Positions 24,447-49,061 of a stretch of DNA of 64,000 nt are shown here, piece by piece (position 1 is the stretch's first letter; each line of letters starts with the position of its first letter). The notes under the pieces were generated by a model. That model searched no databases, was not told where the DNA came from, and was given only the letters and a program-made list of their open reading frames with translations. This DNA is from Unio delphinus (lineage: Eukaryota > Mollusca > Bivalvia > Unionida > Unionidae): positions 2,820,001 to 2,884,000 of the forward strand of contig JAQISU010000114.1 of assembly GCA_029339505.1 (NCBI GenBank), in the 5' to 3' direction. Position numbers and translations under genes: made by a program.

Positions 24447-24960
24447 TTAATTACCGGCACCTAGCATTAGTTTACTTTTCATTGTGGTTTATATTAATCA
24501 ACTTGCTAATTTTTCTTTGAAAGATTTATCAGTGATAGAATCTAACGCGTAAATTAACCTTATATCTGCGAGATGTCTGTGCTCAAGATCATTACTTTTA
24601 TCTGCAACATCACGAGTTTGACAAGCTCGATCAATAGCGTTTATTGGATTCTCGCCAGATTTTAGTTGATCTTGATTATCAAGTCTGATGTCAAGTCTAG
24701 TTCCGGGACCGCAGTAATAATATCCTGGAATGTTTTTCTCCTGGATATTTAACCCATGAAGCACCTAAGTTTTGCCAATTTTGTTGCAACATCACCTCCG
24801 TGATTTTTTAAAAATTCGTTATCGTAGATTCAAATCTAAATTTCTTTGTATCACACACTGCACATTTGCCTGATAAAGCGGGTCTGTTATTGGACGTTGT
24901 TATTGATGTTAGACCATCTTTATATGTACGCGATTTGCATTTCACACAATATAGATCCAT
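24447..24960 (-). pseudogene. element III zinc ribbon / phospholipase A2, decayed
   Basis: The ATG at 24960 begins the zinc ribbon (MDLYCVKCK, then GKCAVCDTKKFRF), which ends in a stop near 24808. The phospholipase part follows in another frame (YYCGPGTRLDIRLD). The catalytic His-Asp of CHAHD in element II reads CQTRD here, so the catalytic His is lost. The slippery A-run of elements I and II is degraded. Confidence 0.8.
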
Positions 24961-31399: not shown

Positions 31400-31707
31400 A
31401 GCAGCAGAGAGGGTGAACAGACCACGTTTTCAAGCAAAAATAAGGCTTACAGATCACGTTTTCGAGCAAAATATGGCTTAGAGACCACGTTTTCAAGCAA
31501 AAAATAAGGCTTCCAACAAAATCTCATTTAACCCAAAAAAAAATCTCCATTTTTGCAAAAACGGAGATTTTACGATTTTTTAATCAATTTTGCTCGCAAC
31601 TATGTGGTCATCACCCTCTCTGCTGCTGAAACTTTCAGTTCTGGTTAACAAAAAATAATAAATGATTTCATCCGAATATTTGATCGAGTCCGATACGATA
31701 TCGTGTC
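31400..31707. repeat. element II left terminal inverted repeat
   Basis: Matches the reverse complement of 62967-63276 nearly base for base. It contains a terminal unit (31400-31627) closed by the inverted terminal word (tcaccctctctgctgct), and it runs on into the last 13 codons of the ATPase gene. The unit contains imperfect repeats of accacgttttcaagcaaaa and a hairpin around aatctccatttttgcaaaaa. Confidence 0.95.
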
Positions 31708-32330
31708 CGAGGATCATGTAAATTTATTGTTACAAATCCGTGCGGGGTTGACTGAGCATTACTAAAGAAATTTTTAAATTGATTATGATCCATATCACCG
31801 CAGCACCAAGTTTGCCAAATATTTCGACATGTATGTGTATCAACGCCGTTAAACACAGCAAGAATATTACAGTTATCTCTGATCACTTTTGGAATCTGTG
31901 TGTAGCGTTGAGTGACATATATCACGTCCGTGCTTTTATGCCTGCCTCGGGGAAATATTCTAGCTGGGTTTATTTGTTTATCTAACATCACATCGTCGTA
32001 TACAGCTAAATTGTTAATACTTCCATCGAGATCTTCTACTGATGGTGCCTCGTCAATATCGGTTATAAAATCAACGACGTTCTCGCCTGCAATCTCTGAA
32101 GCGTTTTCATTAAAATCTTTTAACACTTCATAGCATCGTTGATCATCTACGCTGGGAGCAACTAAATACAACTTATCCCACTTCATCCATCTCATTATTA
32201 AATTGAGCAATAATTGCGTCTTGCCGGATCCAGATGGCCCGATTATAATCATCCGGATAGAGTTTGGTAGCGCTGCATGATGCTTAACTGGTTCTCTTGT
32301 TTTAGTCGCTGAAAAATCAATTATATCCAT
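31668..32330 (-). CDS. packaging ATPase (A32/FtsK-like), element II
   Basis: About 220 residues. The P-loop GPSGSGKT lies near residue 31. A Walker B-like strand ends LAVYDDVML, followed by GRHKSTDVIYVTQRYTQIPK. This is the compact genome-packaging ATPase of Polintons, Polinton-like viruses and related double-jelly-roll viruses, which pumps DNA into the capsid. I chose the ATG at 32330 rather than 32342 because it matches the start in elements I and III. It lies 17 bp from the divergent zinc-ribbon ATG. The frame is intact. The 3' end lies inside the terminal inverted repeat. Confidence 0.9.
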   Translation of the reverse strand: MDIIDFSATKTREPVKHHAALPNSIRMIIIGPSGSGKTQLLLNLIMRWMKWDKLYLVAPSVDDQRCYEVLKDFNENASEIAGENVVDFITDIDEAPSVEDLDGSINNLAVYDDVMLDKQINPARIFPRGRHKSTDVIYVTQRYTQIPKVIRDNCNILAVFNGVDTHTCRNIWQTWCCGDMDHNQFKNFFSNAQSTPHGFVTINLHDPRTRYRIGLDQIFG

Positions 32331-32347
32331 ATCTCTATACATAAATT
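32331..32347. promoter_or_regulatory. 17-bp divergent start region, ATPase / zinc ribbon, element II
   Basis: Only 17 bp separate the two outward ATGs, with AT-rich TATA-like sequence (ctatacataaatt). Element I has the same 17-bp spacing and element III 15 bp. Promoter function is inferred from layout. Confidence 0.45.
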
Positions 32348-32874
32348 ATGGATCTATATTGTGTGAAGTGTAAAATGCGTACTGGCACAGATGACTTGAT
32401 GACGATTACAACTAAAAATAACCGATCAGCGCTTTCTGGTAAATGCGTACAATGTGGTACAAAGAAATTTAGATTTGTGTCTATGAAATCCGGAGATGAC
32501 TTTAAAAAAAACGAGGAGGTGATATCGCAGCCAAATTGGCAAAGCTCCCTGGAACCCCATGGGCAAAGTACTCCGGAGAAAAGCACCTTCCAGGATATAG
32601 CTACTGTGGCCCCGGAACACGATTAGATATCAGACTTGATGATCAAAATCAACCTCGACGTGGTGAAGAACCGATAAACGCTATTGATAAGGCGTGTCAT
32701 GCTCATGATGTTGCATATAGGAGCAGCGATTTGCAGCAAAGACATCTAGCAGATGTGAAATTAATTCATGCATTAAATGCTATTCCTGATAAATCTTTCA
32801 AAGAAAAATTAGCTTCATGGTTAATAAAACCGGTTATGAAAAGCAAATTGATGTTAGGTGCCGGTAATTACTAA
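32348..32874 (+). CDS. zinc ribbon joined to phospholipase A2 by -1 frameshift, element II
   Basis: Frame 0 starts at the ATG at 32348 and encodes a zinc ribbon (YCVKCK, then GKCVQCGTKKFRF, similar to DUF5679). The -1 frame encodes a phospholipase A2 of the parvovirus VP1 type: calcium loop YCGPGT, catalytic DKACHAHDVAY. That frame has no ATG before the active site. It opens only after a stop at 32503-32505, beside an in-phase slippery heptamer A AAA AAC at 32506-32512. A -1 slip there would give one protein of about 175 residues. Without it frame 0 ends at 32626. In parvoviruses this enzyme breaches endosomal membranes during entry; the same role here is inference. The 3' end lies 4 bp before the integrase ATG. 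Confidence 0.82.
32506..32512 (+). promoter_or_regulatory. candidate -1 frameshift site A AAA AAC, phospholipase, element II
   Basis: In-phase heptamer in the zinc-ribbon frame, followed by gaggaggtgatatcgc. The same heptamer and downstream bases occur at the same place in element I. A -1 slip enters the phospholipase frame. Confidence 0.7.
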
Positions 32875-32878
32875 CAAC

Positions 32879-33189: not shown

Positions 33190-33419
33190 AGCAGCAGAGA
33201 GGGTGAATCCTACAACATTTTTTGTTTTTATTTTTGATTATACCCTCCAAATAACACTAGACCCTTCTCGCGAAATAACTAGAAAAAAAATGACTGTGAA
33301 CATGGGATTCGCATTCGCGTTTTCGTTGATGTCGCAACGTCGTTGTCACTCACCCTCTCTGCTGCTATGGGTTAACCGAATATTTGATCAAGTCCGATAC
33401 GATATCGTGTCCTAGGGTC
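33190..33419. repeat. element I left terminal inverted repeat
   Basis: Inverted match to 48782-49061 with about 50 bp of net deletions. It contains a terminal unit (33190-33366) closed at its inner side by the same terminal word in inverse orientation. It also holds a copy of the last codons of the ATPase gene (ccgaatatttgatcaagtcc), although no ATPase gene is next to it. Confidence 0.93.
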
Positions 33420-33445
33420 ATGTAAATCACTACGACGAAAATCAT

Positions 33446-34810
33446 TTATGATTTCACAAATAGACTAATTTGTAAAACCTCCTCTTGTAAATCAATCAGA
33501 TTATTGGACTGGTCAGTGAGTTTGAAATTAATTCTGGTTAATGAATTATTATGACATCGCATATAGACTGGATTCACCGGGGACTCAATTATTAAAAACC
33601 CTGGAGGAGCTGTTGGTGCAAATGAATACAGAATATATCCTTGCTGAGCTTGATTTGATCGTTCTAGATTAATTTGATAGCTTCCTTCGATCACATCACA
33701 CACTAAATTGAGCGCAATCACCGTTGAAATATTCACATTGAACGGAGCAATATGCCTGCCACCACCATCTGGGTCATTATTATGTTTGAGGATAGTTGTT
33801 TGTGGTTGTGATGGTGTTTTTTTCCACGTATCATGGATTTTTTTGAAACCTTCATCGATGGCATCACTGAGAGATTTTTGTAATTCTGAGATATTATATC
33901 CTGGTAGTTTAAACTCACGAATATCTTCTACGCGTATATTACCTTTCATCGCAAACTCTGTTCTCGTTTTAGGATTATCGTCACCTAATATCTCTTGAAT
34001 AATTTGTGAATGAAATGTTTCCATGTCATTGATGATTTTGTTACATATTTCTACAACGCTGATAAATTCATCTCGGGTGAGAGTGCCGGATTTAATGGAT
34101 ATTAACAACAGTAAAAAATCATATTCCATCGCTGTGAAATTTTCAGTAATTTTGTTCTGTCGGGGTACGAATTTGACAACGTTATTTTCTACTATTCCAT
34201 TGAAAAGTTCCCACTTATTATAATCTTTATAACTCTTTATTGGATTATCAGATTTTATCCTGTCTGTGATATAATCGGTTTGTTTGGGTTCTGGTAAATC
34301 AACGGTTTTTCCCCCGGGTGGTAATTCAGGCCATCCTAGTACGGTTCTAATAGAACTCTGATAGATATCTACGACGTATCCTTCTGTGCTTATTTCAATG
34401 GCAGATGATAGTGTCGGCACATGAACTGTTATAGCTATTTTTGACTCTACTCCAGTAATCGATTTTATTCTACGCGCGAATTCATCATTGATTTGTTCAA
34501 TTTGATATGATCCGGTTGGTATGGAAACAACGTTCCAGTCTGGGGTACCGTCGGGTTTATTCTTATTTGCAAATACCAGTGAATTATTGGGTTGTTGACC
34601 ACCAAATGATTTTGACCTAATATTTGGCCAACTGTGGTATACTCGTAATTTTGCTAGCGCTATCTCCTTCACTGGGACCGGAGAGGGGAAATTCACACTG
34701 AATTCTGGATTCGTTGAGGTTATTGAGATCATGCTTGTTTGTACTGGGTTTGTGTTCTCCACTATTTGTTGAAGTAATTCCATCTGTGTTGTCATTGTTA
34801 TTATACTCAT
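33446..34810 (-). CDS. penton-like minor capsid protein, element I
   Basis: 454 residues, ATG at 34810. The N-terminal domain has VKEIALAKLRVYHSWPNI, then VVSIPTGSYQIEQINDEF and TVLGWPELP. The C-terminal domain has VSTVIALNLVCDVIEGSY, PTAPPGFLIIESP and LTRINFKLTDQSNNLIDL. I recognise this two-part layout from virion proteins of Polinton-like viruses in animals, where it is the likely penton or vertex protein. The assignment is by pattern and not by structure. It is the last gene of the structural block. Its first 194 bases overlap the 3' end of the membrane-protein gene in another frame. The frame is intact and well conserved in element II. Confidence 0.75.
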   Translation of the reverse strand: MSIITMTTQMELLQQIVENTNPVQTSMISITSTNPEFSVNFPSPVPVKEIALAKLRVYHSWPNIRSKSFGGQQPNNSLVFANKNKPDGTPDWNVVSIPTGSYQIEQINDEFARRIKSITGVESKIAITVHVPTLSSAIEISTEGYVVDIYQSSIRTVLGWPELPPGGKTVDLPEPKQTDYITDRIKSDNPIKSYKDYNKWELFNGIVENNVVKFVPRQNKITENFTAMEYDFLLLLISIKSGTLTRDEFISVVEICNKIINDMETFHSQIIQEILGDDNPKTRTEFAMKGNIRVEDIREFKLPGYNISELQKSLSDAIDEGFKKIHDTWKKTPSQPQTTILKHNNDPDGGGRHIAPFNVNISTVIALNLVCDVIEGSYQINLERSNQAQQGYILYSFAPTAPPGFLIIESPVNPVYMRCHNNSLTRINFKLTDQSNNLIDLQEEVLQISLFVKS

Positions 34811-35264
34811 GTTTTTGTACTTCTAATTTTGACATCGCAGAATCATATATATCTACCATCGCTGAAAACTTACTCTCTGATATAATTGTATCATCGAGCG
34901 ATGACGATATCAATGAGGATAATTGCGAGTATGCAGTAGACACAACATGAAATTGAATTATGTAGTCTTGTAGTTTCCGTTGGCTGCATGAGGATATTTT
35001 TTTTGTGATTATTGAAATAATTCCAGCGATTGTTGTTGCCGCAGAAATGCAAATTGGAACAGCTATCGGAGCCATCATTGTCACTGAAGACAGTATAATA
35101 CCAGCTCCGGTGATTACACCACTCACAGCGTACACAGTAACATCAATTGCGGTAATTTTCCTGCGGTATTTTTTAATTTTCATTGCATACTCCTCAGACA
35201 AGGTTTTGAGTCTAGTTTGATACTCCCTGACCTGATCATAGCGATATTGCGATGATGAAATCAT
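34617..35264 (-). CDS. membrane protein, element I
   Basis: 215 residues, ATG at 35264. An N-terminal basic helical part (REYQTRLKTLSEEYAMKIKKYRRK) is followed by a long hydrophobic region at about residues 40-90 (GVITGAGIILSSVTMMAPIA, then CISAATTIAGIISIITKK), enough for two membrane helices. After that come a helical stretch and a polar Asn/Ser-rich tail. The tail overlaps the start of the penton-like gene. Similar two-helix proteins lie beside the penton gene in other animal Polinton-like elements. A role in virion membrane interaction or assembly is a guess. Confidence 0.6.
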   Translation of the reverse strand: MISSSQYRYDQVREYQTRLKTLSEEYAMKIKKYRRKITAIDVTVYAVSGVITGAGIILSSVTMMAPIAVPICISAATTIAGIISIITKKISSCSQRKLQDYIIQFHVVSTAYSQLSSLISSSLDDTIISESKFSAMVDIYDSAMSKLEVQKHEYNNNDNTDGITSTNSGEHKPSTNKHDLNNLNESRIQCEFPLSGPSEGDSASKITSIPQLAKY

Positions 35265-35293
35265 TTTTATTTTAAATACGCTATCGTTTTCAA

Positions 35294-36243
35294 TTACGAT
35301 TTACTTAAATTCGCTACGAATTCCACATACCACGTTGTTGAGACCCTAACCAAATCTTTATCAGTAGATGTAATTGTAAACTTTTCAGTTCTATCCTTGT
35401 CGATGATCGTTGAAATCGTATTATTGACCCCGGATGAACTGGACGATGAAATATTAAATTGAGACAATGGTGTTACTAGTTTTAATCGATAAATACCCTT
35501 AACGGTTGCAGTGATATCTAATTTGTTGTTTGTAGGTGACCACTCAAATGATCCGTGTTGGATCGTGTATACTAAGTTGTTGGTTTTCTCATGAGGAATT
35601 TTTGTTTTTTCAATGGTTGTTATCATCCTCGAAAAATCACCTTTGACGGCTTCGATGAAAGTTTTCGTCTCATCGATGGATTTTTTAATATCAGGGAGTT
35701 TTAGTTCAATTTTATCGAATGTAGTTCCAATAAATTTATCAATGATATTTCTACGAAATGATATAAACTGTTTTATGTGTTCTTCAATTCTAGATTCAAG
35801 TGTTGTTAGTACAACCACAGAATTGTTTAACTCATCGTTGAGAATTTTTAATCGATCTGTAATCGTCGAAACGAGTACACCCGGTTTGAGTTTACCCTGA
35901 TCGGAAAATAACGCAACGGTGTTCTCGATTGCGTTTTGTTGTTTAACTAAAATATCATCCAGAGAAATATTACTGGTTTTCAATTTACCCTGATCGGAAA
36001 ATAACGCAACGGTGTTCTCGATTGCGTTTTGTTGTTTAACTAAAATATCATCCAGAGAAATATTACTAGATTTCAATTTACCCTGGCGATCTTGAAATAC
36101 AACTATTTCATTGGGTTCAACACTTTCTAAATTCAACGTCTCAGCTATTTCATCTTTAATTTTTTTGTTATATCCTTGATAGAATCAGGGGTTGCAGTGC
36201 CATCGGGTTTGGGTTTCAAAGATCTCCCCCAAATATCAATCAT
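35294..36243 (-). CDS. fibre-like protein, entered by -1 frameshift, element I
   Basis: Frame 0 starts at the ATG at 36243 (MIDIWGR), one base after the protease stop codon, and ends after 32 codons. The long frame (-1) has no ATG until far downstream and is entered at A AAA AAA (36166-36160, in phase). The product of about 310 residues has two identical 30-residue repeats (FSDQGKLK then SLDDILVKQQNAIENT), a coiled-coil-like middle and a beta-rich C-terminus ending STTWYVEFVANL. Repeats, a helical stalk and a beta-type end suggest a trimeric fibre for receptor binding. That is inference; I know no exact family. The C-terminal half is not alignable with element II. Confidence 0.6.
36160..36166 (-). 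promoter_or_regulatory. candidate -1 frameshift site A AAA AAA, fibre, element I
   Basis: In phase at codons 26-28 of the short ORF from 36243. The same site is at 59578-59584 in element II. A -1 slip enters the long fibre frame, which has no start codon of its own. Confidence 0.65.
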
Positions 36244-36244
36244 G

Positions 36245-36676
36245 TTATTGTAAAACTCTTTCTCTCTCTAAAAAGCGATTGCTGGTGTAGTCATTTACGA
36301 CAATATGAGGTGGTTTTCTAGATGCTGAAATAGCGTCAAGGACATTTAATACTTCACTGCCGCATATTGGTGGGTCATTGATTTGTTGTGTTGGTAGCGT
36401 AGAATACCAAGTCTTCATTGGAAATTGTTTTATATAACGCATAAACTCTTTTGGTGGGGCTAATCCATATGAATCAAAATAGACAATCCCACGTGGATCA
36501 ATAGCGTATGCAACCCAGTGAGTTCCAGGTCCGGTGCTGTTATCGAGATTAATAATACCTGTTTCAGTTTTGTTTGGTTGATGTGGTAATTGATCTTTCA
36601 TAAAAACACCTCTGAAATTTTTAATCACTAGTTTTTTAGCCGCATCCATTAAATCAAAATTGGACATGGGAACCAT
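36245..36676 (-). CDS. adenain-like cysteine protease, element I
   Basis: 143 residues from the ATG at 36676 (MVPMSNFDLMDAAKKL), chosen because the same start is conserved in element II; the frame is open upstream to 36811. Catalytic positions fit the adenovirus protease (C5) order: His53 in GTHWVAY, Asp68 in YFDSYG, Gln97/98 in LPTQQ and Cys105 in PPICGSEVL. This protease matures capsid proteins in adenoviruses and Polintons. It lies between the core-like gene, which its frame overlaps, and the fibre gene. The intact motif set supports function. Confidence 0.88.
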   Translation of the reverse strand: MVPMSNFDLMDAAKKLVIKNFRGVFMKDQLPHQPNKTETGIINLDNSTGPGTHWVAYAIDPRGIVYFDSYGLAPPKEFMRYIKQFPMKTWYSTLPTQQINDPPICGSEVLNVLDAISASRKPPHIVVNDYTSNRFLERERVLQ

Positions 36677-36705
36677 CGAAGATTTGGGAACCATAGGTTC
36701 CTCAA

Positions 36706-37245
36706 TTAATAAACCGTTCCTGGTAGTCTCAGGCCTGATCCGTGAACGGATCTCCCGATGTACCATGAATACGGGGTTCCTGGTAGTCTTAGACCTTTTC
36801 CGCTGTACCATGAATACGGGGTTCCTGGTAGTCTTAGACCCAATCCGTGAACGGATCGTCTCTTTTTTTTATATCCTTGTCCAGCTGCCTTTTTCAACGC
36901 CATTCCTGCTGCAGTACCAACGGCTCCTAACGCCGCTGCTTTAGCCACCGCTGGGGCTGCTGCTGCAATCAATGCTGGTATTGCAGCTAACAATGGAAAT
37001 ATACCGCCTGTTTTAATCATATTTTTGATAGCAGCCGCAGAAAGAGTAATCTGAACACCTTTTTTATCCTTGAAAGCATCATTGAAATGTTTCACCTGAC
37101 GAGTTGTCAGCGATAATTTATTTGCACCACCAGTCATTTGATTGGGTTTCAACGTGATTGTGGTTCCACATTTTTTAGCCGATTCTGATTGCAATTTTTT
37201 GATTTGACCAGGAGTTAACGTAACACTAATAACACTATATGACAT
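36706..37245 (-). CDS. hydrophobic core-like virion protein, element I
   Basis: 179 residues. The N-terminal part has SVTLTPGQIKKLQ, then MTGGANKLSLTTRQ and KGVQITLSAAAIKNM. A very hydrophobic Ala-rich helix follows (LLAAIPALIAAAAPAVAKAA), then a basic Gly-rich tail with three repeats of GLRLPGTPYSWY type. Small proteins of this layout are common next to capsid genes in animal Polinton-like elements and recall adenovirus pX/pVI by size and composition. The phrase LPGTPW also occurs in the phospholipase protein. Its 3' end overlaps the open protease frame by about 100 bases in a different frame, in both elements. Confidence 0.6.
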   Translation of the reverse strand: MSYSVISVTLTPGQIKKLQSESAKKCGTTITLKPNQMTGGANKLSLTTRQVKHFNDAFKDKKGVQITLSAAAIKNMIKTGGIFPLLAAIPALIAAAAPAVAKAAALGAVGTAAGMALKKAAGQGYKKKRRSVHGLGLRLPGTPYSWYSGKGLRLPGTPYSWYIGRSVHGSGLRLPGTVY

Positions 37246-37294
37246 TATATATAATTGATTGATTCTAATTCAATGAAAAATCGAGAAAAATCGT

Positions 37295-38713
37295 TCAAAG
37301 ATTTTCTACTGGGGCATCTACCACTCTCATTCTTCCACCAACACCTTCGAGTAGCATTGATTTATCACTGAGAATGACAGCAACCGCTCTATAATCAGCA
37401 ATAACACCACGAGTCACATTAGCTCTAAAGTGTATATCAACAACTGACTGTCTTGTCAAATCGAGATGTTCCAGTGAGAAGTAATAGATCGGATACAAAT
37501 TTTTAAAATCATATTGTGATATTTGCAAACCAGTATCGACATTTTGATCGCGTGCCATAAATGACAACAGACGATGATAAACTCGTGCAATATGATTTTC
37601 TGTGTAATTAAGTTGTATATCCTCGGATGGTTCCTGCTGGCCGTTTATTCTCAGTGAGACGTCTTTCACACCTAATTGATCAAATATCATATGGCTTCGT
37701 TCTTGATTATTAACTCGTGTGGTATCCTGTAACGCAATAAATATATGATGTGGCGCAGAAACGCCTTGATTTGATGCTAGGTTCCAAGTGAATAACCCGT
37801 TGATATTTGATTGCTTCACATCTGTACTCACGGTTAGCCAACTCAACAACGACTTTCCTCCTTGATCCATAAATGATAGTAATCGTCCTTCTGCGGTGAT
37901 TGCTGGAGTCAACACTGGCATCCACAATGATATTTTTGTTAAATCGACTCTACCGGCATCAGCATTGGCGGCTGCAGCATTTGCTGGAATCCTCCAAATT
38001 GCATCATTATCATCACTTTTTCGTACAAGCGATACTGTATGCTTCGCCCCGTAGATAACTTTTCTGACGTTTCTACAGAATCCAAATATGTGATGCAGTG
38101 GAATCGCGCATGAAAATGATTTACGCTCTCCTTGCAACATTGCGTTTCGTGTTGCAGCTCCTAGATTGAAATCAGGATCGTTGTTTATAATCATATTCTC
38201 GATACCAGCAACATTAGCAGGGTTAGCAGCACGATCCCTTGGTTGTCTTATAATAAATTGTTTTCCTCCAGCGGTATTCTTAGCATCTTTTGCAAACATC
38301 ATAGAGGGTCCTGCTGATCTTGTATAATCATCAGAATATCTCGCTAACCCGATTATTGTTGTAGCCACATCAACATCACGATCTATGGACTCAATTTCTT
38401 TTCCATCAATGAGATATCTAGCACTCTCAAATAGCGCCATAATACCATTATTGACAAAACCGACTTGAGTACCAGCTGGATACGGTGCTGGTACAGCAGT
38501 AGTATCAGCAGCTGTTACAATTTCTCCTTCTACTTCAATAAATGCTTCACAGGGTAAAAAGTATTTACTGGTATCATGGACTTGAAGATCAATTCTTGCT
38601 CGACTATTTGAGTCTATGGCATGATAGGCGTAATATTGATAATCGCGTACAGAATCATTCTTGGGGACTGGGGCATCTATATCAAATGCTGGATCAGGTG
38701 ACCTTTTGAACAT
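37295..38713 (-). CDS. major capsid protein, double jelly-roll type, element I
   Basis: 472 residues, ATG at 38713. Family marks are FVNNGIMALFESARYLIDGK with the following EIESIDR, the sequence LHHIFGFCRNVRKVIYGAKH followed by TVSLVRKSDDNDAIWR, and the C-terminal VDIHFRANVT. These match major capsid proteins of animal Polinton-like viruses (double jelly-roll fold, hexon-like trimers). It is the longest structural gene, flanked by the pVI-like and core-like genes. The frame is intact here, while element II has a nonsense codon. Confidence 0.9.
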   Translation of the reverse strand: MFKRSPDPAFDIDAPVPKNDSVRDYQYYAYHAIDSNSRARIDLQVHDTSKYFLPCEAFIEVEGEIVTAADTTAVPAPYPAGTQVGFVNNGIMALFESARYLIDGKEIESIDRDVDVATTIIGLARYSDDYTRSAGPSMMFAKDAKNTAGGKQFIIRQPRDRAANPANVAGIENMIINNDPDFNLGAATRNAMLQGERKSFSCAIPLHHIFGFCRNVRKVIYGAKHTVSLVRKSDDNDAIWRIPANAAAANADAGRVDLTKISLWMPVLTPAITAEGRLLSFMDQGGKSLLSWLTVSTDVKQSNINGLFTWNLASNQGVSAPHHIFIALQDTTRVNNQERSHMIFDQLGVKDVSLRINGQQEPSEDIQLNYTENHIARVYHRLLSFMARDQNVDTGLQISQYDFKNLYPIYYFSLEHLDLTRQSVVDIHFRANVTRGVIADYRAVAVILSDKSMLLEGVGGRMRVVDAPVENL

Positions 38714-38767
38714 TTTATTCTATTTATCAGAGTCTAAATCGTGAAATCGTAAACGATTTTTCCATTT

Positions 38768-39199
38768 TCATCGTCGTAGTTTTTTAAAGCCACTTCCTGC
38801 TATCATGTTTGCAATATTGCTTTGGTCCCCTTGATTTACCATCGACGCTAGTTTTTCATCTACTGCGTTATTTATAATTTTACTAACACTTGCAGGCATT
38901 TCTTCTGTAGACGGTAACGGTTTCTTTTTTCGCCTCACTAATGATGTTATTTTATCCTTCGCAGTTGAAAACGCTTTCCCGGCAAGATCTCCAACAGCAC
39001 CAATACCCTTATCACGAATAACATCAATGGCTTTCATTGATAATTGTTTAGCTAACGGCATCACTTTTGGGGCCATTCTTGAAAAGAATCCTAAAATGGT
39101 ATTGCCGAGGCCATCTCCATAGTATGCTTTATAAACTGGAAACCGTGAATTAACTACATAGACGGGGGTTGGTTTATCATGATTGTAATGGATGATCAT
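38768..39199 (-). CDS. pVI-like minor capsid protein, element I
   Basis: 143 residues. The N-terminus is MIIHYNHDKPTPVYVVNSRF. An amphipathic stretch GDGLGNTILGFFSRMAPKVM follows, then PLAKQLSMKAIDVIRDKGIG, a basic cluster RRKKKPLP and the end AGSGFKKLRR. A Gly-rich amphipathic helix before the capsid gene is typical of the pVI-like cement protein of Polintons and adenoviruses. The assignment is by layout and composition. Confidence 0.6.
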   Translation of the reverse strand: MIIHYNHDKPTPVYVVNSRFPVYKAYYGDGLGNTILGFFSRMAPKVMPLAKQLSMKAIDVIRDKGIGAVGDLAGKAFSTAKDKITSLVRRKKKPLPSTEEMPASVSKIINNAVDEKLASMVNQGDQSNIANMIAGSGFKKLRR

Positions 39200-39232
39200 T
39201 ATTATAAAAACAATAGTGTTTTCAATTGTTAT

Positions 39233-40333
39233 TTAATCACTATGATACCCATTTGCTAACTCGTCAATGAAATCTCGATATGTTTTGATATCCATGATAC
39301 CGCCGGCAAATAACCGTCTACAGATATCAGCTGCTTCATTAATTATTTCTGGAGAGTTATTTCCAGCTCGGAATCCTCCTACAAGAACATCTAATCGTGA
39401 TATATCATTGATAACACTATCAGGACAAGTGTTTCCAATCCTTGGATTTTGCAGTCCACTTCCGCTATAACCAGCTGCTTCATCTAGTTTTTCTAAACCC
39501 GTTTCTTGTAAATAATCATCATTAGGGTCTTCTTGTTTTTTTTGTCTCCGTGTTGGTGTTTGACGTCGTTCTTCTAAATCATCATCATTAGGGTCTTCTT
39601 GTTTTTTTTGTCTCCGTGTTGGTGTTTGACGTCGTTCTTCTAAATCATCATCATCATCAGGTGGTAGTTGTTGTTTTTTTTGTCTTCTTGTTTGTCTACG
39701 TGTTGGTGTTTGACGTTTTAGTTCTTGCCGTTCTTCTATTTCTCGTTGTCGCTCTTCTATTTGTTCTCTTTTATAATTACTAATTCCCTTTTTAAATTCC
39801 TTGTATCCTATCTCATCCTTATTCAAACGACCAATCCCTTTATTTAGTTTATACAAATAATCGAACCAATCATTACTTGATATTCTATCATTTTTATACT
39901 CGTCCTTTAAAAAATCTTTTTTTGAATTATAGCTTTGAGCAGCAAAATTACCAAAGGCTTGATAATCCTTTGATTTCAATAAAATAGGTTTTTTTATTAA
40001 TATTTTAGCATGATCAGTAAATTTATTCAACAGAGAAACAGTCGTTTTTTTCGGATCAGTTTTTTCAGTTTGTTCAGTTTTCGCTGCTAGTTTTTCAAGT
40101 TCACCAATAACAGATTTTCCCGTCTCGGGACCATCTCCCAGTAAAGCACGCTCTACCCCTTTCGTTGCTGTGGTTACTGGTTTAAACAATTCTTCAGACC
40201 CCAGAGCAAAATCAGTTTGTAAACTCTGTCGTTGTTGCAGTTTATTTCTTACAGAGTCGCGAATTGGTATAAATTTCTTAATTGCATCTAGTCGCTCACG
40301 AGCCAATCGGGTCGTTAATGCTTCATTGACCAT
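39233..40333 (-). CDS. basic repeat-containing protein, structural block, element I
   Basis: 366 residues from the ATG at 40333 (MVNEALTTRLARERLDAIKK). The N-terminal half is helical. The middle is a low-complexity region rich in Gln, Arg, Glu and Asp with three tandem copies of RRQTPTRRQKKQ followed by acidic residues. The C-terminal domain (VLVGGFRAGNNSPEIINEAA, DICRRLF, TYRDFI) is the best conserved part with element II. I do not know its function. The position next to capsid genes and the charged linker suggest a virion or scaffold protein. Confidence 0.6.
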   Translation of the reverse strand: MVNEALTTRLARERLDAIKKFIPIRDSVRNKLQQRQSLQTDFALGSEELFKPVTTATKGVERALLGDGPETGKSVIGELEKLAAKTEQTEKTDPKKTTVSLLNKFTDHAKILIKKPILLKSKDYQAFGNFAAQSYNSKKDFLKDEYKNDRISSNDWFDYLYKLNKGIGRLNKDEIGYKEFKKGISNYKREQIEERQREIEERQELKRQTPTRRQTRRQKKQQLPPDDDDDLEERRQTPTRRQKKQEDPNDDDLEERRQTPTRRQKKQEDPNDDYLQETGLEKLDEAAGYSGSGLQNPRIGNTCPDSVINDISRLDVLVGGFRAGNNSPEIINEAADICRRLFAGGIMDIKTYRDFIDELANGYHSD

Positions 40334-40846
40334 TATTTGAAATCAGAAACCATTTTTCAATTGCAAAACAATTTTCCCCATCGATGATTCCATCCTTAAC
40401 GGTCCAATTTTTTATTGCTGTGAAATATTTTTATTTTTTATTCATTGATTTTGCCTGTTTTTGACAGTTTTGGTGGTTTTCAGTTGAAAATCTCAAAGAG
40501 ATTTTACAGTCAAGTAGTCGATTTTACATGGGATTTTCCATAAGGAAAAGCTGTTAAAACTCATTTTTGATGATTTTTAGCCATTTTTCATCAATTTTTG
40601 CCTGTTTTCAGTGATGTTTGGTCATTTTTCATCGATTTTCATCAAAAAACCTCGTAGGGTCAAGTAGTCGATTTTGCATTGGATTTTCCATAGAGAAAAG
40701 TTCTTAAAAGAACTTTCAAAGCTGTTAGGATTCTATTTTATTTTCGCAGTGTGAAATATTTTCACTGATTCAATCAAAAAATGACAAAAAAATGAAAATC
40801 TCAAGGAGATTTTACTGTCTGACAAAATCTTTTGAGGGTCGGTCAA
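40334..40846. other. intergenic region with direct repeats, element I
   Basis: Non-coding. Two copies of a 40-bp direct repeat lie at about 40511-40551 and 40662-40702 (tcaagtagtcgatttt, then ggattttccata). Many T-rich words such as catttttcatc are also present. The function could be regulatory. Element II has two hairpins in the corresponding gap instead. Confidence 0.5.
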
Positions 40847-41203
40847 TCAAAATAGTTCATTTTCTTGAATTAACGCTCGTAAGTTTCTAATTTTAGAATT
40901 AACTTCCTTTTTCAATTCATATTCGTTACCCAATTCTTTTCGTATTCCTTCCACGATAGTATATAACGGAACAAACACATCTACTTCACTGGAAAATGCA
41001 AGAGAGTCTCGAATAGAATTTTGAATTTTTTTGATGAGTGCATATTTCTTTGGTAACATATACTTGTTAGTGCTAACTCCGTATTCTATATCCTGAAAAT
41101 CCGACTTGATTTGATCAGTATTTAACCCATCTGACAATTTAATATTCTGATTTTTCAATTTTGCAATTTTAACTATGATGCTATTCATAATTTCAGAATT
41201 CAT
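40847..41203 (-). CDS. small helical protein, unknown, element I
   Basis: 118 residues, ATG at 41203. Predominantly helical by composition, with KLSDGLNTDQIKSDFQDIEY and KYMLPKKYALIKKIQNSIRD. There are no cysteines and no membrane segment. It is strongly conserved in element II (54664-55020), which shows selection. I do not recognise a family. Confidence 0.65.
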   Translation of the reverse strand: MNSEIMNSIIVKIAKLKNQNIKLSDGLNTDQIKSDFQDIEYGVSTNKYMLPKKYALIKKIQNSIRDSLAFSSEVDVFVPLYTIVEGIRKELGNEYELKKEVNSKIRNLRALIQENELF

Positions 41204-41264
41204 ATATGATAATACATATTTCTAATTCATTTTTCAAAAATAAATGAGCCGTTAATATTTTTAA

Positions 41265-41690
41265 AATTCAGTCTGTATATATAAATATCTTTTTTAAAAT
41301 AATTCTGTACATATAACTATATTTTTTAAAATTCAGTCTGTATATATAAATATCTTTTTTAAAAATTCAGTCTGTATATATAAATATCTTTTTTAAAAAT
41401 TCAGTCTGTATATATAAATATCTTTTTAAAAATTAATTCTGTATATATAAATATCTTTTTAAAAATTAATTCTGTATATATAAATATCTTTTTAAAAATT
41501 AATTCTGTATATATAAATATCTTTTTTAAAATTCAGTCTGTATATATAAATATATTTTTTAAAATTAATTCTGTATATATAAATATATTTTTTTAAATTA
41601 ATTCTGTATATATAAATATATTTTTTAAAATTAATTCTGTATATATAAATATATTTTTTAAAATTAATTCTGTATATATAAATATAAATG
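41265..41690. repeat. AT-rich tandem repeat, about 13 units of 33-36 bp
   Basis: The core word is attctgtatatataaatat followed by a T/A run. Two variants alternate (cagtctg and aattctg). Length changes are in the T and A runs. Confidence 0.92.
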
Positions 41691-42387
41691 CAGACAAAAA
41701 TAAATATCAACCATGATGAGCGGTTATCAGTCATTTGACCCCCTTGATATAGGCCGCTGTGGTTCTATTTGCATTCATTGGGTCCCTTATTAGGCCTTTG
41801 TGTCTTTCATAGGGTTCCTTTGTTAGAGCATTTTTCTGTTTCTGTTTTATATCAGAATGTTTTTGCTCTTTGAGATATGACCCTATGACCGTTTCTTTTA
41901 GCCGATAATTCATTCTGGGGTTACCCAATGTGCATCCACGAACCTTTTTTTGGCCGGTAATTCATTTTGAACACCATATGGGGCTACCCAAATGTGATGG
42001 AGAGCTAATTACATCCATGGATGTTATTTATTTTAGGGCATTTATGTGTTTACATTCAACATGCAACCCATGAAATCAAATTCATGGTTGCGTAAGTTGT
42101 CAAAAACTGACAACCCACCGCTACCGTAAATTTGATAGCATGGGTTTGCATGTTATGTGAATGCACACAGAGGGGTTGCCCTCCCCCCCCTCAATTAAAT
42201 AGAAAAAAAAAACATCCACCGTTTCACCATCAGACAATTTGTCTGCTATGGGGCGCGAACATGTGAAGAATAATTGTCTGGGTTTACAAGCCAAACACGA
42301 TACCGTTAGACCACTGTTCACGTCCATAAAGAATAACGTTTTTTAACATATATATGTTGTAAATATTCATATAGTATATAAAGGGAC

Positions 42388-42770
42388 TTAATACAGCAAT
42401 CTGCAAGGTATGCTATTTTATTTTCTTGAATTACTTATTAATGGTGTTTCACGGTATTTAAAGGAGACAGCATATTTGACTTAAACACTAAAACAAAGAA
42501 TATAATTGTTTGAAAACATTTCTTTTCTTACAAAACAATGCCCAGCCGCTGAATCACAATAACCCATAAAACAAGTTAACACAATCTAAGGGAGAAAGTA
42601 TAAAGGTAACTTAATACAGCAATCCACAGGGTGTTATTTTATTTTCTTAAATTACTTATTAATGGTGTTTCACGGTATTTAAATGAGACAGAATATTTGA
42701 CTTAAACACTAAAAAAAAAGAAAATATTTCTTTTCTTATAAAACAATACCCAGCCGCTGAGGGAGATAAC
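42388..42770. repeat. 221-bp direct repeat pair
   Basis: cttaatacagcaatc at 42388 recurs at 42609. The two copies share ttattaatggtgtttcacgg and cccagccgctga and differ by substitutions and small deletions. Confidence 0.85.
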
Positions 42771-42794
42771 TCCCTTGGTTCATTTGCATACTAA

Positions 42795-43163
42795 CTATTG
42801 TTTGTCTAATTCATTAATAACATCACTGGAGAATCTTTCAATGTAGTCTTGAGGGGATTTTATGATTTTGTCGCTGACTTTGTCAGTGTCAGGTTCATAA
42901 TTTCTGATTGATTGTCCATTTTTTATTCGTTTGTCATAATAGCGTTTTAGTTCCCTGTATCGTTTGCCGCCACACCTAAGACATAATTGCGACCTTCCCC
43001 TAACCCCAACCCCACATCGAATACAGGGTAACGGACCAAGGCTTCCACGACGAAAGCTTTGCATATGATACCAACAGAATTCATTTCTGCATGATTTGTT
43101 ACACGGTGTCACTGATCCAATCATAAGCCATTTGCAATGATTCATTATACTTAAATCTTTCAT
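42795..43163 (-). CDS. Cys-rich zinc-binding protein, element I
   Basis: 122 residues, ATG at 43163. Cysteines are arranged as C-HK..., PCNKSC, FCWYH, PCIRCG and LCLRCG, enough for two zinc sites, followed by a basic helix (KRYRELKRYYDKR) and an acidic tail. Similar small Cys/His proteins occur in Polinton-like viruses; the function is not known to me, and nucleic-acid binding is plausible. It is divergent from the polymerase gene, with 24 bp between the ATGs. Confidence 0.7.
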   Translation of the reverse strand: MKDLSIMNHCKWLMIGSVTPCNKSCRNEFCWYHMQSFRRGSLGPLPCIRCGVGVRGRSQLCLRCGGKRYRELKRYYDKRIKNGQSIRNYEPDTDKVSDKIIKSPQDYIERFSSDVINELDKQ

Positions 43164-43187
43164 TTAAATACTTGTTTTAATTATAGT
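43164..43187. promoter_or_regulatory. 24-bp divergent start region, Cys-rich protein / polymerase, element I
   Basis: The AT-rich 24-bp gap is identical at 23 of 24 positions to the one in element II (53701-53724). It must hold or sit between two promoters. Part of the control sequence probably lies inside the coding regions. Confidence 0.5.
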
Positions 43188-46100
43188 ATGGAGGAGTTCG
43201 AGAGATTATCGAAAATTAAGCCCTGGAAAAGTGTTCAATTCAATCTTGATAGAGTTTCTGATACACCAAAGAATAAAATTCTTGATAGAACCTTGATTAG
43301 TAAAATCAGAGACTGTTTTAATGAATTCAAGCGTGATGGGGCAGCTCATTGTTGGTCAACATTTCGAATTGATGGTGTTGTTGACGCTACCATGAATGAT
43401 GAAAAAGCAGCAGTGATAATCTCACGTCTTGGGGAAGAAAGAAATTTTTTTCGAATAAAATTCCTTATCCGTGATAATGGAAAATGGATCATTAGGGACA
43501 AATACGAGCCTATTCTTAAGGACAAAAAAACTGTCACTGTGACTCAGGATTCAAAACCAGGAATTTTGACTGGAATTGACAAACCCTACTACGAAAGATC
43601 TTATCCTGTCACAGCAGTTGTTTACGGGATATATCCGCTCAATGACAAACCTGATATTGCAAAACTAGCACCCATGAAATATTCGACAGGGCTCAATTGT
43701 GTAGCAGCACGAATAATGGAACACTTCACAAATGCGTCCCGGGGAAATAAACTAACTGATCTAAGACGAAAAAAAATAACCGAATGGGAACTGACAGTGA
43801 AACAGCATGGGGCAACAATTCAAGATATAGCCAAATTAGAAACATCATTGAGATTTCCAATATCGGTAAGGACAATCACCGGTGAAGTATTATACGAATC
43901 GAAATATAATAAAAATGGAACCCCAATACAGATTATTGATCATAACGAACACGCGTGGTCATCTGCAGTAACAATATTCCCACGGGATAGAACCGTAAAA
44001 TATCTATCCCAAACTCTGTTTGGAACCGAAGAGTTTTTTTCAGAGCAGAAATTATTTGATGCTATTTACCATTTGAGTAAAAACGATCCCGTGTCAATGT
44101 GGCTATTTCATAGTACTTCAGACGAAGAATGTAGATTTGATCAGTTTGTAAGGCCCAACGGAGAATTGTACCGTACTGAAGAACTGCATAATCAAATGAA
44201 ACAACTAGCTAGTGAGTTTTCTCTGGAGGAAGACAACGATCAATTATTAGCAAACTGTTTTACACTTCCATCAGTTGTAGCACATTTTGCTAGGAAGAAA
44301 AACGCGTGGAAACCAACACGAAGTGAGTTCTTATCAGAGGTCAAATTGTCTTGTCTTGAATACGGTCATGGAGGATTATGGAATACAAAATACACCGCTG
44401 ATACCGTTATTTCAGTTGATATGATTGCGTGTTATCCAGGAAGTTTTCTTGGGTATGGAGAATGCGAGAAATATTTCAAACGATTTGGACACCCTACACA
44501 CGAAATGACCCGTGTTGCTATTAATGGACCACTGCCACATTTCGATTTAACCGGATTCGCTTGTGTAGTATCATTTGAAATGGCTGAAGGACTTCATCCG
44601 TGTAGTTATCTTTGGATTGGTAAACACATGTCTGAAAAACACTGGATGCCAATAGTGTTATTACGGTATATGCTTGATTGTAAGATGTTAAAATCATTAA
44701 TTGTCAGTGAAGCAATTATATCCTATCGAGCACAGAAATCAGTCTGGTTACCACAACCTGATCTAGAAAAAATAATTAGCAAAGAGCGAAAACTGTTTCC
44801 AAATTTCAGTGAACAACAAATCATGGATTGGTCCCAACAGTTATTTGAAATCAGAAACAATGAAGCAAAAGACCTTGGACGAAGAATAATCGGTAAATTT
44901 ACCCAAGGTGGCAAAGATGATAATACGAGATATTCTTCACGATTGATTGTAGACAATGCTGAATACGATTTTGTAATCACGGATTTAACGAATAGGGGCC
45001 TATATGTCAATCGTAAGGACGCATTTATGTCCGATGGAACCAAATTGGGTACAATTGTTACTTACACTGATGGATACAATCCGCAGTACACACATTTGAG
45101 AGCTTCTATGCTTGGTTATGCTTCTATTAATTTATTTTCAATGATCAATAGATTTCCTACCACCGCAGTTAGAGTTGCTACTGACTCATTTTACATAAAT
45201 AGCAAAATGGCTGATTTTAAGGCTACTGGCAACGAGAATTGGGGGTCATGGAGAATTAAGAAGGAAATACTTCATGATTATATTCCATCAGCAGATGTTA
45301 CCATTGAAAATAATTACTTAGAAAGCAATCAGTGTTCAGAATTTTCTAGTGCACCACCGATTTCTGATCCAATCTGTAGATATAAAACAGTTTATTTAAA
45401 CGGCTGTGGTGGGTCAGGAAAAACAACCCGGGCAATTGAGTTATTTCGTGTTTCCAATCCAAACATGATTGTACTAACACCGACTCACAGACTTGCAAGA
45501 GAAATGATACAGAGAGGGGTAAATGCCTGCACTTATCATAGTTTCTTTAGATGGAAGGGAGATAAATGGACTCCTGAGCGCATGGGAGAGAAATTTATTC
45601 CTGAATTCATCATGTGGGATGAAATAGACACAGTGTCCGAAGATGTCTTAAAAATATTTCTTGAGTGGTTGTTATTGAAGAATACAAAAGTCGTCATGTG
45701 CGGTGATCACCGCCAACCACCACCATTTGTCGGTGCTTCCCCCCATGAATGGCTAAAGGGTTTTGTAGACTATTATGAAGAAATTGATACCGATCATAGA
45801 TCACTTGATAATGAATTAAAAGAATTGAAGAAACTAATTAGATTACAACCGGATAAAATCCAGTGTGAAATAGCCCGTGAAATAATTTCGGAAACTCCCA
45901 TGAATGAGTTTTGGGAAGCGTGGAGACCAAATGATTTAATCATTGCAAGTAGAAAAATAGTCAGGGACACACTTCAGATGAAGTTATTTGAATTGCATAA
46001 ACAAAAATTTGCAACACTTCCAGTGCCCCTCTGTTATAGGCCATCGGATACACGAAAACAGAACATCGAAGTTGATATTCCAGGCCTGACAGAGTCAGGG

Positions 46101-46663
46101 CGTGAAAAGAAGATTCTCGTATTAAATGATATTGTGCTGGTTGATATCAATGTCGTTGAAGATGCATTGCGTGCTAATAAATCCCCATGGACGCTAGATT
46201 ATGCAGCAACAATACACTCTTCACAGGGATTGACTATATCGGATACAATTGTTTGGATGGTAGATAATCGCATAGAATGGTCGAATTTAGTCTATCTCGC
46301 AGTGTCTAGAGTACGAAAAATAAATCAACTTCGAAGAATTGTCTTCGATGATGAAATCATTGGTGGCGATGATGAAATCATTGGCGATGATAATGATATT
46401 ATTGATAAAAAAAACTCTCCGGTTACAAACAACAAGACAAAAAAAAACAACGAGAATTTGATATTGATGCTGAATTAATAATCACTTTGAAGCAACAACA
46501 AAATAATCACTGCGCAAGTTGCAATTGTATAATGCGTTGGCAGTATTCGGATAAGGATCCTCGCCAATTCACCGTTGACAGAAAAAATAACAATCTCGGT
46601 CATGTCAGAAATAATGTGATGTTGACTTGTCTTGAGTGCAATAGACGCAAGGGTGCTAGTTAA
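43188..46663 (+). CDS. B-family polymerase / SF1 helicase / HNH tail protein, element I
   Basis: Frame 0 gives 1096 residues (to 46478) and the -1 frame continues to 46663. Polymerase motif A is VDMIACYPGS (Asp411), the B region GRRIIGKFTQGG (about 563) and motif C ATDS (664-667, usually DTDS). I see no clear exonuclease motifs. The helicase part is SF1, Pif1/Dda-like: P-loop GCGGSGKTT (739), motif II WDEID (810), motif III GDHRQPPP (839), HSSQG (1010) and LVYLAVSRVR. The tail has CASCNC, FTVDR, LGHVRNN and CLECNRRKG, an HNH/endonuclease VII-like zinc fold, reached through an A-run in the -1 frame. It is the replication protein of the element. Protein priming, usual for Polinton polymerases, is assumed only. 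Confidence 0.85.
46409..46448 (+). promoter_or_regulatory. two candidate -1 frameshift sites before the HNH tail, element I
   Basis: A AAA AAC occurs in phase at 46409-46415 and again at 46442-46448. The -1 frame is open from 46409 to 46663, so a slip at either site gives the HNH tail. In element II only the second position is relevant, and it reads G AAA AAC. Confidence 0.55.
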
Positions 46664-46706
46664 GCCCATGCGGTGGTAATTGAGTATCCTCAGGTATCAC
46701 TTGTAA

Positions 46707-47609
46707 TTATTGTCTAGTAAAACCCCGTTGAGGGGCAGTTGAATCCAGTTTATAGATTGGAGGTCTACCCGTAGATCGTGTTATACTAGATATCTTGTGT
46801 GCAGTAACACTCCAAATAGGATCAGTAGCCCTTTTTGTGCCACCCTCAAGCTCTCCTGGTTCGTATAAGTACCTCACAATGACATTACTACCAAGAATTG
46901 GTTGGGAAACGCTAAAATCTTTTTGAATTTCCATTTCAGGTATTGACTTCTTTTTAATCGCATTGATAGGTTTCATGTTGATGGTTCTAGTAATCTCGTT
47001 ATTCAGTGCAGTAATCACAGCTGGTAACCTTTTAACCCATTCACGGGATCTTTTTTCTTGGATGAATTCTTTTGCGTATTGATATCCAAATAACCGTTCA
47101 GCAAGAGTCCGATTAAACCGTTCTACAATGGCCTGATCACGATGTAGCGCAGTATGTCCTCGTCTGATAGTGACTTTATGATTTTTCATTGTAGATAACA
47201 CTACACCCTGAAATTCTTTGCCGGGATCAATTTGTAATAGATTTGGCCAGTGCAGAGGGCCCCTTCGATAAATCCTTTCAAATGCAGAAGCTACTTCAGT
47301 GGCCGATTTTGTTTTTAACGGTTCTGCTTCTTTGTATCGACTTGCAATATCAACTACGGTTAATGCGTATTTGTAACCACGATCATGTAGCAAATATAAT
47401 ATCTCAGCCTGATGAACTTCATTGGGTCCGGTCACATCAAAATGCGAGAATTGAATTTGTTTAGGCGGTGGTAGATAAATTTGCCATAGTGCCTGTTTGG
47501 ATAACCAATGAGCCGCAGTGGTTTTTTTCACTTTTGCAGCGCTAGCGAGTTTATGGATTGCTGATTTACCCCTCCAGTATCCTCTTGGGGAATAATAAAT
47601 AGATTCCAT
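46707..47609 (-). CDS. retroviral-type (rve) integrase, element I
   Basis: 300 residues from the ATG at 47609 (MESIYYSPRGYW), preferred to 47630 by match with element II. The N-terminal helical zinc-like region includes WLSKQALWQIYLP. The catalytic triad is Asp58 (SHFDVTG), Asp128 (LLQIDPGKEF) and Glu163 (AIVERFNRT), with 34 residues between the last two. The C-terminal SH3/chromo-like part has PGELEGGTKRATDPIWSV and IYKLDS. This is the Polinton integrase that inserts the DNA. A nonsense codon (Gln to stop) at 46707-46709 removes about 15 residues; the original stop is at 46656-46658, where it overlaps the end of the HNH tail. The loss is at the far end, so activity may remain. Confidence 0.9.
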   Translation of the reverse strand: MESIYYSPRGYWRGKSAIHKLASAAKVKKTTAAHWLSKQALWQIYLPPPKQIQFSHFDVTGPNEVHQAEILYLLHDRGYKYALTVVDIASRYKEAEPLKTKSATEVASAFERIYRRGPLHWPNLLQIDPGKEFQGVVLSTMKNHKVTIRRGHTALHRDQAIVERFNRTLAERLFGYQYAKEFIQEKRSREWVKRLPAVITALNNEITRTINMKPINAIKKKSIPEMEIQKDFSVSQPILGSNVIVRYLYEPGELEGGTKRATDPIWSVTAHKISSITRSTGRPPIYKLDSTAPQRGFTRQ

Positions 47610-47616
47610 GTTGTTA

Positions 47617-48146: not shown

Positions 48147-48163
48147 GATTTATATATAACGGC
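48147..48163. promoter_or_regulatory. 17-bp divergent start region with TATA-like core, element I
   Basis: gatttatatataacggc between the two outward ATGs. The tatata core is close to symmetric, so it could serve both directions. Function is inferred from layout. Confidence 0.45.
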
Positions 48164-48829: not shown

Positions 48830-49061
48830 AATCACCGTAAACCTAGAACTGAAAGTTCCAGCAGCAGAGAGGGTGAGTGACAACGACGTTGCGACATTTT
48901 ATGATTCATCAACGAAAACGCGAATGCGAATCCCATGTTTTCAGACAACAATCACTGTCATTTTTTTTCTAGTTATTTCGCGAGAAGGGTCTAGTGTTAT
49001 TTGGAGGGTATAATCAAAAATAAAAACAAAAAATGTTGTAGGATTCACCCTCTCTGCTGCT
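48782..49061. repeat. element I right terminal inverted repeat
   Basis: Inverted match to 33190-33419. The terminal unit 48860-49061 (202 bp) is bounded on both sides by the AGCAGCAGAGAGGGTGA word in inverse orientation. The repeat reaches into the ATPase 3' end. Confidence 0.93.

What the first reader, a model, noticed from the sequence alone, without database searches (positions are those of the whole stretch)
32348..32874. Phospholipase A2 frame without a start codon, entered through a conserved A AAA AAC heptamer
In elements I and II the phospholipase lies in the -1 frame of a zinc-ribbon ORF, has no ATG before its active site, and begins at an in-phase A AAA AAC. The bases upstream of the heptamer differ between the elements while the heptamer stays. 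This is what programmed -1 frameshifting predicts and would make a zinc ribbon-phospholipase virion protein as a minor product.
Basis: partly seen in the sequence, partly recalled or inferred. Interest (0 to 1): 0.88.

Follow-up and report, generated by a model that had tools for sequence, protein, structure and literature searches.

The report
Split viral phospholipase gene, unstable poly-A
In virus-like elements of an animal genome, a gene that in most relatives makes one zinc-ribbon/phospholipase protein is here split into two reading frames at a run of As whose length drifts between copies; the phospholipase half still looks protected by selection, so it may be made by slippage at that run, but the slip site is not a fixed, conserved signal.

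Summary
In detail: at 32348-32874 a DUF5679 zinc ribbon is followed by a start-less PLA2 frame in -1 that opens at an in-phase A AAA AAC (32506-32512); a second copy (48146-47617, minus) has the same phase with other upstream bases. One frame is the family norm: 73 of 168 relatives read are one-frame fusions against 24 in -1 and 4 in +1, and this genome holds many one-frame copies too. Of 106 anchored copies PLA2 is in -1 in 69, +1 in 24, 0 in 13, with A runs of 6-12, so the heptamer is one state of an unstable tract. No downstream pseudoknot was found. Plain decay does not explain all: a young lineage carries -1 with the heptamer in 33 of 37 copies, and PLA2 shows strong purifying selection between the two -1 window copies (dN/dS 0.10, like the ATPase) and in differences shared among -1 copies. 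Best reading: an unstable poly-A joint in a fusion gene, PLA2 perhaps still made at a low level by -1 slippage. Unproven without RNA or peptides; PLA2-null drift is nearly as likely.

The parts
32348..32626 (+). Zinc-ribbon ORF (DUF5679), zero frame, with a non-conserved tail after the tract (copy II)
32501..32512 (+). T3A8C tract with in-phase A AAA AAC at 32506-32512 (copy II)
32506..32874 (+). PLA2 frame in -1 of the zinc ribbon, no ATG start (copy II)
47949..48146 (-). Zinc-ribbon ORF, copy III, in the younger element B
47976..47988 (-). T3A9C tract with in-phase A AAA AAC (47982-47976), copy III
47617..47982 (-). PLA2 frame in -1 (copy III); the frame is open a few codons further upstream
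24450..24956 (-). Degraded copy I: no heptamer, stop in the tract, a further frame break, active-site His lost
31668..32342 (-). A32-type packaging ATPase of the older element, next to copy II
33198..49065 (.). Younger element B inserted in the integrase gene of the older element (inverted ends, shared 5-base TCAAC); approximate ends
   Evidence: flanks read by eye

Best explanation
This is the zinc ribbon-PLA2 gene of a Polinton/adintovirus-like element. The basic linker between its two domains is written by a T-A homopolymer tract that changes length easily, so lineages carry PLA2 in 0, -1 or +1 relative to the zinc ribbon. In both readable window copies it is in -1 at an in-phase A AAA AAC. 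PLA2 is probably still translated in such -1 lineages, at a low level, as a C-terminal extension of the zinc ribbon, by an unaided -1 ribosomal shift on A AAA AAC (or A AAA AAA). It is a tolerated, perhaps dose-setting state of an unstable joint, not a fixed programmed signal. Shown: anatomy, phase tallies, selection on PLA2. Inferred: translation, the route, the low level, the virion role (by analogy with parvovirus VP1 PLA2, recalled).
For: Start-less -1 PLA2 with in-phase A AAA AAC in both copies. In-phase A AAA AAC in 53 of 69 and some in-phase slippery heptamer in 61 of 69 -1 copies. Young lineage B: -1 in 33 of 37 anchored copies; joint run at modal length in 33 of 37 against 16 of 37 for an A9 at the tail of the helicase ORF in the same copies (p 5e-5); PLA2 broken in 3 of 4 phase-changed and 1 of 33 unchanged B copies. 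dN/dS between the two -1 window copies 0.103 for PLA2, 0.108 for ATPase. Within -1 copies of lineage C, shared differences are 20 N:33 S against 55 N:22 S for private ones (p 1.6e-4). One-frame copies are the rarest class in C (10 of 67; 3 of 29 in the set chosen without regard to the joint). A_AAA_AAC is among the shiftiest heptamers on mammalian ribosomes (PMC5009743, passages).
Against: No downstream stem or H-type pseudoknot. Phase not conserved: 37 of 106 anchored copies are +1 or 0; one C sublineage is mostly +1 (11 of 20), which -1 shifting cannot serve. One-frame lineages also multiply in this genome (16 listed matches with one identical score). Private differences in the 10 one-frame C copies are constrained (16 N:21 S) while those in -1 copies are nearer neutral (55:22), as if one-frame copies came from the functional source. 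In the Cpol set PLA2 is broken about equally rarely in all phases (-1 2 of 17, +1 1 of 9, 0 0 of 3). Part of the steadiness of the B joint is youth: flank divergence 0.9% there against 1.5% at the helicase tail. No RNA or peptide evidence.
Confidence: 0.4

Rival explanations
1. Hypermutable homopolymer with PLA2 dispensable: the elements multiply inside the genome as transposons, where the virion phospholipase is not needed; the tract drifts and out-of-frame copies and founders are PLA2-null, too young to have decayed further. The selection seen dates from one-frame phases.
For: All three phases occur among closely related copies; A runs 6-12; non-coding A9 and A10 runs in B also vary (modal in 10 of 30 and 13 of 30); private differences in one-frame C copies are constrained, those in -1 copies less so; one-frame lineages exist in number.
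Against: -1 rather than one-frame is the founder state of B (33 of 37), one-frame is the rarest class in C (10 of 67), the B joint run is steadier than an equal A9 nearby, and shared differences in PLA2 of -1 copies are strongly constrained. The non-coding runs have flanks about 7% diverged, so they are a poor control.
Confidence: 0.36
2. Transcriptional slippage: RNA polymerase adds or drops As at the 8-10 A run, so every phase yields some mRNA in which PLA2 is in frame; tract length then sets only the dose.
For: Would explain why -1, +1 and 0 copies all keep PLA2 (+1 shared differences 12 N:10 S, below neutral, p 0.04). Precedent: an 11-A tract in Citrobacter tssM gives two proteins by transcriptional slippage (PMC4256274, abstract and passages).
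Against: Copy II has only 8 As; slippage at such length by the host polymerase is unproven, and the precedent is bacterial.
Confidence: 0.14
3. PLA2 is reached without the tract, by splicing into its frame or by internal non-AUG initiation.
For: Six near relatives have an ATG in the -1 frame inside the zinc-ribbon region; eukaryotic host.
Against: In the window copies that -1 stretch holds stops. No ATG between frame opening and 17 codons into PLA2 in 68 of 69 -1 copies. Splice sites were only looked at by eye.
Confidence: 0.06
4. Assembly error in the A run of the window copies.
For: Homopolymers are error-prone in some long-read assemblies (recalled); no reads were available.
Against: ATPase A7 is uniform in 37 of 37 of the same copies (two core runs, 30 of 30 and 29 of 30, lie inside the segment used to pick copies and so count less); the joint run is uniform in 33 of 37 B copies; metagenome contigs from other sources show the same -1 split (18 zinc-ribbon and 6 PLA2 ORFs).
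Confidence: 0.04

Closest known systems
One-frame DUF5679-Phospholip_A2_4 proteins of metagenome contigs (e.g. P0010, P0015)
   Same: Same two domains in the same order, 64-83% identity over PLA2 for the near ones; often a lysine-rich linker
   Different: Both domains in one frame; 9 of 23 near ones have no lysine pair in the linker
Split -1 relatives in metagenomes (18 zinc-ribbon ORFs such as P0064, 6 PLA2 ORFs such as P0001)
   Same: PLA2 in -1 of the zinc ribbon, lysine run at the joint
Parvovirus VP1 phospholipase A2 domain (role recalled)
   Same: Pfam Phospholip_A2_4, calcium loop and HD pair (motif naming recalled)
   Different: Fused to a zinc ribbon, not to a parvovirus capsid protein; no solved-structure match by sequence
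Suggested -1 frameshift in adintovirus Penton genes (PMC11071296, passages)
   Same: Same broad virus group, -1 recoding suggested by computation to give an alternate C-terminus
   Different: Other gene; the passages seen do not mention PLA2 or this joint
Poly-A transcriptional slippage in tssM (PMC4256274, abstract and passages) and 'savior' indel frameshifting in herpesvirus thymidine kinase (PMC5009743, passages)
   Same: A homopolymer that leaves a domain out of frame, with some product recovered by slippage
   Different: Shown there by experiment; here only inferred

Membership tests
Programmed -1 ribosomal frameshift site | In-phase X XXY YYZ heptamer between zero frame and -1 ORF | tested here: met
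   A AAA AAC in both window copies; in 53 of 69 -1 copies
Programmed -1 ribosomal frameshift site | Downstream ORF has no start of its own | tested here: met
   No ATG before the active site in copies II and III
Programmed -1 ribosomal frameshift site | Stimulating structure a few bases downstream | tested here: not met
   Fold z-scores +0.78 and -0.87; simple H-type scan found none in either copy, while shuffles did no worse in 60 of 60 (approximate energies)
Programmed -1 ribosomal frameshift site | Site and phase conserved in homologs | tested here: not met
   Met in lineage B (33 of 37) but 37 of 106 anchored copies are +1 or 0, and one-frame relatives are the norm
Programmed -1 ribosomal frameshift site | Trans-frame protein shown | not testable with these tools
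   No RNA or peptide data
Transcriptional slippage site | Long homopolymer at the frame change | tested here: met
   A8 and A9 in the window copies, 6-12 elsewhere
Transcriptional slippage site | mRNA length heterogeneity | not testable with these tools
   No RNA reads
Polinton/adintovirus-like element | Double jelly-roll capsid protein and A32-type ATPase | tested here: met
   PF21738 E 1.7e-18; PF04665 E 3.5e-10
Polinton/adintovirus-like element | rve integrase and adenovirus-type protease | tested here: inconclusive
   rve 26.6 bits (cut-off 32.6) and Peptidase_C5 17.8 bits (cut-off 21.3): below the curated cut-offs
Polinton/adintovirus-like element | Protein-primed DNA polymerase B | tested here: inconclusive
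   The 1096-aa ORF matched only helicase families; polymerase-like motifs are a recalled resemblance
Polinton/adintovirus-like element | Terminal inverted repeats and target-site duplication | tested here: inconclusive
   Inverted ends and a shared 5-base TCAAC read by eye for element B; 6 bases are usual for Polintons (recalled)
Phospholip_A2_4 (PF08398) | Profile match above the curated cut-off, HD pair present | tested here: met
   48.1 bits against cut-off 23.9; HD present in copies II and III

The most novel reading that the evidence does not exclude
A phase-variable switch in an animal DNA virus: a poly-A tract inside a zinc ribbon-PLA2 fusion gene sets each lineage's PLA2 dose by reading frame (one-frame full, out-of-frame low by slippage); lineages of different phase coexist and multiply in one genome while selection keeps PLA2 coding in them.
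Probability: 0.25. Interest if true: 0.75.

Novelty: new variant of a known kind. Interest (0 to 1): 0.5.

Why it matters
If out-of-frame copies do make PLA2, recoding would govern the dose of a membrane-lysing virion enzyme in a DNA virus group for which I saw only one computational hint of frameshifting in print, and one genome with many copies in three phases would be a natural experiment on slippage. If they do not, the case is a caution: start-less frames at slippery heptamers in endogenous viruses can be drift of a homopolymer.

Tried and rejected
Viral contigs (IMG/VR): three scans gave no relative. Rfam: nothing in 32300-32900. Solved structures: none by sequence. Structure scans downstream: negative (the planned pseudoknot routine was missing from the library, so a simple scan of my own was used). 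A tree of 41 copies without the tract was poorly resolved (25 of 37 inner branches open) and the count of phase changes printed nothing. The integrase row of the dN/dS table was out of register and gave no value. Genome-wide pattern searches for tract length did not complete. First run-length control used loose flanks and was redone. First classing of relatives used a bad pattern and was redone, which still put 6 one-frame proteins under 'Zn other'; I count them as one-frame by eye. Dropped before counts: 3 of 40 B and 8 of 37 Cpol stretches without anchors; window copy I; two of the 39 other pol-C hits not refetched because already held (L047, L012, both +1); two -1 rows of 69 C copies dropped by a similarity filter; one of ten one-frame joints not readable (L163). 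Copies share ancestry, so p values are rough.

Full report
What is there. The window is animal DNA with several virus-like elements that carry a double jelly-roll capsid gene, an A32-type ATPase, a protease and an integrase matched below cut-off, and a long ORF with a helicase. Gene order and repeats indicate an older element interrupted in its integrase gene by a younger one, B, at about 33198-49065; the flanks show inverted ends and a shared TCAAC (by eye). Copy II of the gene in question (32348-32874) belongs to the older element, copy III (48146-47617, minus) to B. A third, degraded copy lies near 24450-24956.

The joint. In copies II and III a DUF5679 zinc ribbon runs into a T-A tract with an in-phase A AAA AAC; PLA2 lies in -1, has no ATG before its active site, and in copy II opens exactly at the heptamer. 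Upstream bases differ while phase and heptamer stay. In-phase A AAA AAC is rare in the elements' other ORFs (4 of 7840 codons).

Relatives elsewhere. PLA2 found 63 relatives and a profile 1616, of which 120 were listed. Of the 168 proteins held, a script classed 67 as one-frame zinc ribbon-PLA2 proteins and 6 more are so by eye; 6 PLA2 ORFs begin in the -1 reading of the zinc ribbon and lead into a lysine run; 18 zinc-ribbon ORFs carry the tail of a -1 split; 1 PLA2 and 3 zinc-ribbon ORFs fit +1; 62 PLA2-only proteins are uninformative. One frame is thus the norm, with 9 of 23 near one-frame linkers lacking a lysine pair. The zinc-ribbon query itself ends in a -1 tail and the tool's length limits cut long and very short ORFs, so the ratios are biased. 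These relatives come from other samples, so the split is not an error of this assembly alone.

Copies in the same genome. One search listed 40 copies among 3165 first-look candidates; I read the 39 besides the window (Cbias set). Another listed 40 copies by a segment of the helicase ORF 4.4 kb from the joint, 15 of them, the window's own included, with the top score; I read the joints of all 40 (B set; 37 anchored). A third listed 40 by the matching segment of the older element; I read 37 (Cpol set; 29 anchored). Phases: Cbias, 40 with copy II: -1 19, +1 14, 0 7. B: -1 33, 0 3, +1 1. Cpol: -1 17, +1 9, 0 3. In all 69, 24 and 13 of 106. The A run is 6 to 12 long. A search with a one-frame relative listed 150 matches, each covering its whole length in one frame, 142 without a stop and 16 with one identical score, so one-frame lineages also multiply here (this query favours one-frame copies by design). 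Nine of ten such joints could be read; in two the A run is interrupted.

Is the -1 state kept? In B the joint run has its modal length in 33 of 37, an A9 at the tail of the helicase ORF in 16 of 37 (p 5e-5), an ATPase A7 in 37 of 37, an integrase T7 in 25 of 37. Non-coding A9 and A10 runs are modal in 10 and 13 of 30, but their flanks are about 7% diverged against 0.9% at the joint and 1.5% at the helicase tail, so part of the steadiness is youth. Of four phase-changed B copies three have a broken PLA2, of 33 unchanged one (p 0.002). In C the tract moves freely; one sublineage is mostly +1 (11 of 20), and PLA2 is broken about equally rarely in all phases of Cpol (2 of 17, 1 of 9, 0 of 3).

Is PLA2 under selection? 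Between copies II and III, both -1, dN/dS is 0.103 for PLA2, 0.108 for ATPase, 0.202 for the orf454/460 pair, 0.222 for the helicase ORF, 0.310 for capsid, 0.398 for protease. In C, private differences are 74 N:30 S and shared ones 32:37 (neutral N/S 3.06); within -1 copies 55:22 against 20:33 (p 1.6e-4); within +1 copies 25:16 against 12:10 (shared against neutral p 0.04); within one-frame copies 16:21 against 4:8. In B they are 48:32 private and 3:4 shared. PLA2 was thus protected in lineages whose copies are mostly out of frame, unless the tract flips so often that selection acts only in one-frame ancestors. For that alternative speaks the constraint on private differences of one-frame copies; against it, one-frame copies are the rarest class in C (10 of 67; 3 of 29 in Cpol) and -1 is the founder state of B.

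How it most likely works. A_AAA_AAC is among the shiftiest heptamers on mammalian ribosomes (PMC5009743, passages), so a low level of trans-frame PLA2 from -1 copies is plausible; with no structure found downstream it would be an unaided, leaky shift. Transcriptional slippage would serve all phases and has a bacterial poly-A precedent (PMC4256274, abstract and passages). A PLA2-null, transposon-like state is the main sober rival, nearly as likely. A conserved programmed site is not supported; the narrower claim, that -1 copies may make PLA2 by slippage, remains open.

Print. A preprint suggests -1 frameshifting in adintovirus Penton genes by computation (PMC11071296, passages). Searches on adintovirus with phospholipase A2, polinton with frameshift, adintovir or PLA2, maverick with phospholipase A2 and parvovir, adintovirus, and DUF5679 showed no paper on this joint among the listings seen; the lists were cut and subscription journals are mostly not held.

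Noticed in passing
32348-32476 (+) and 48146-48018 (-): The zinc-ribbon stretch is nearly identical between the two elements (synonymous difference 0.018) although the flanking ATPase and PLA2 differ at 0.58 and 0.42 of synonymous sites: gene conversion or a DNA-level constraint.
   Followed up: partly
Linkers of lineage C copies, e.g. L036 and L041 against L009 and L120: Copies with near-identical PLA2 carry quite different linkers upstream of the tract, one of them resembling that of element B: recombination with a breakpoint near the tract looks likely.
   Followed up: partly
43500-44050: 15 of 40 listed genome copies of this segment, the window's own included, share the top score at 100% identity: a very recent burst of this element.
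   Followed up: partly
46407-46447: Two A runs near the end of the helicase ORF vary between copies, so its C-terminal tail changes frame from copy to copy.
   Followed up: partly
6335-28490: A host-like ORF, resembling a galactosyltransferase (recalled, not tested), repeats about every 2.7 kb with CATA-type satellites between the copies.
   Followed up: no
41257-41719: A 33-base tandem repeat that reads as a repeated YIYRINFKK-like peptide.
   Followed up: no
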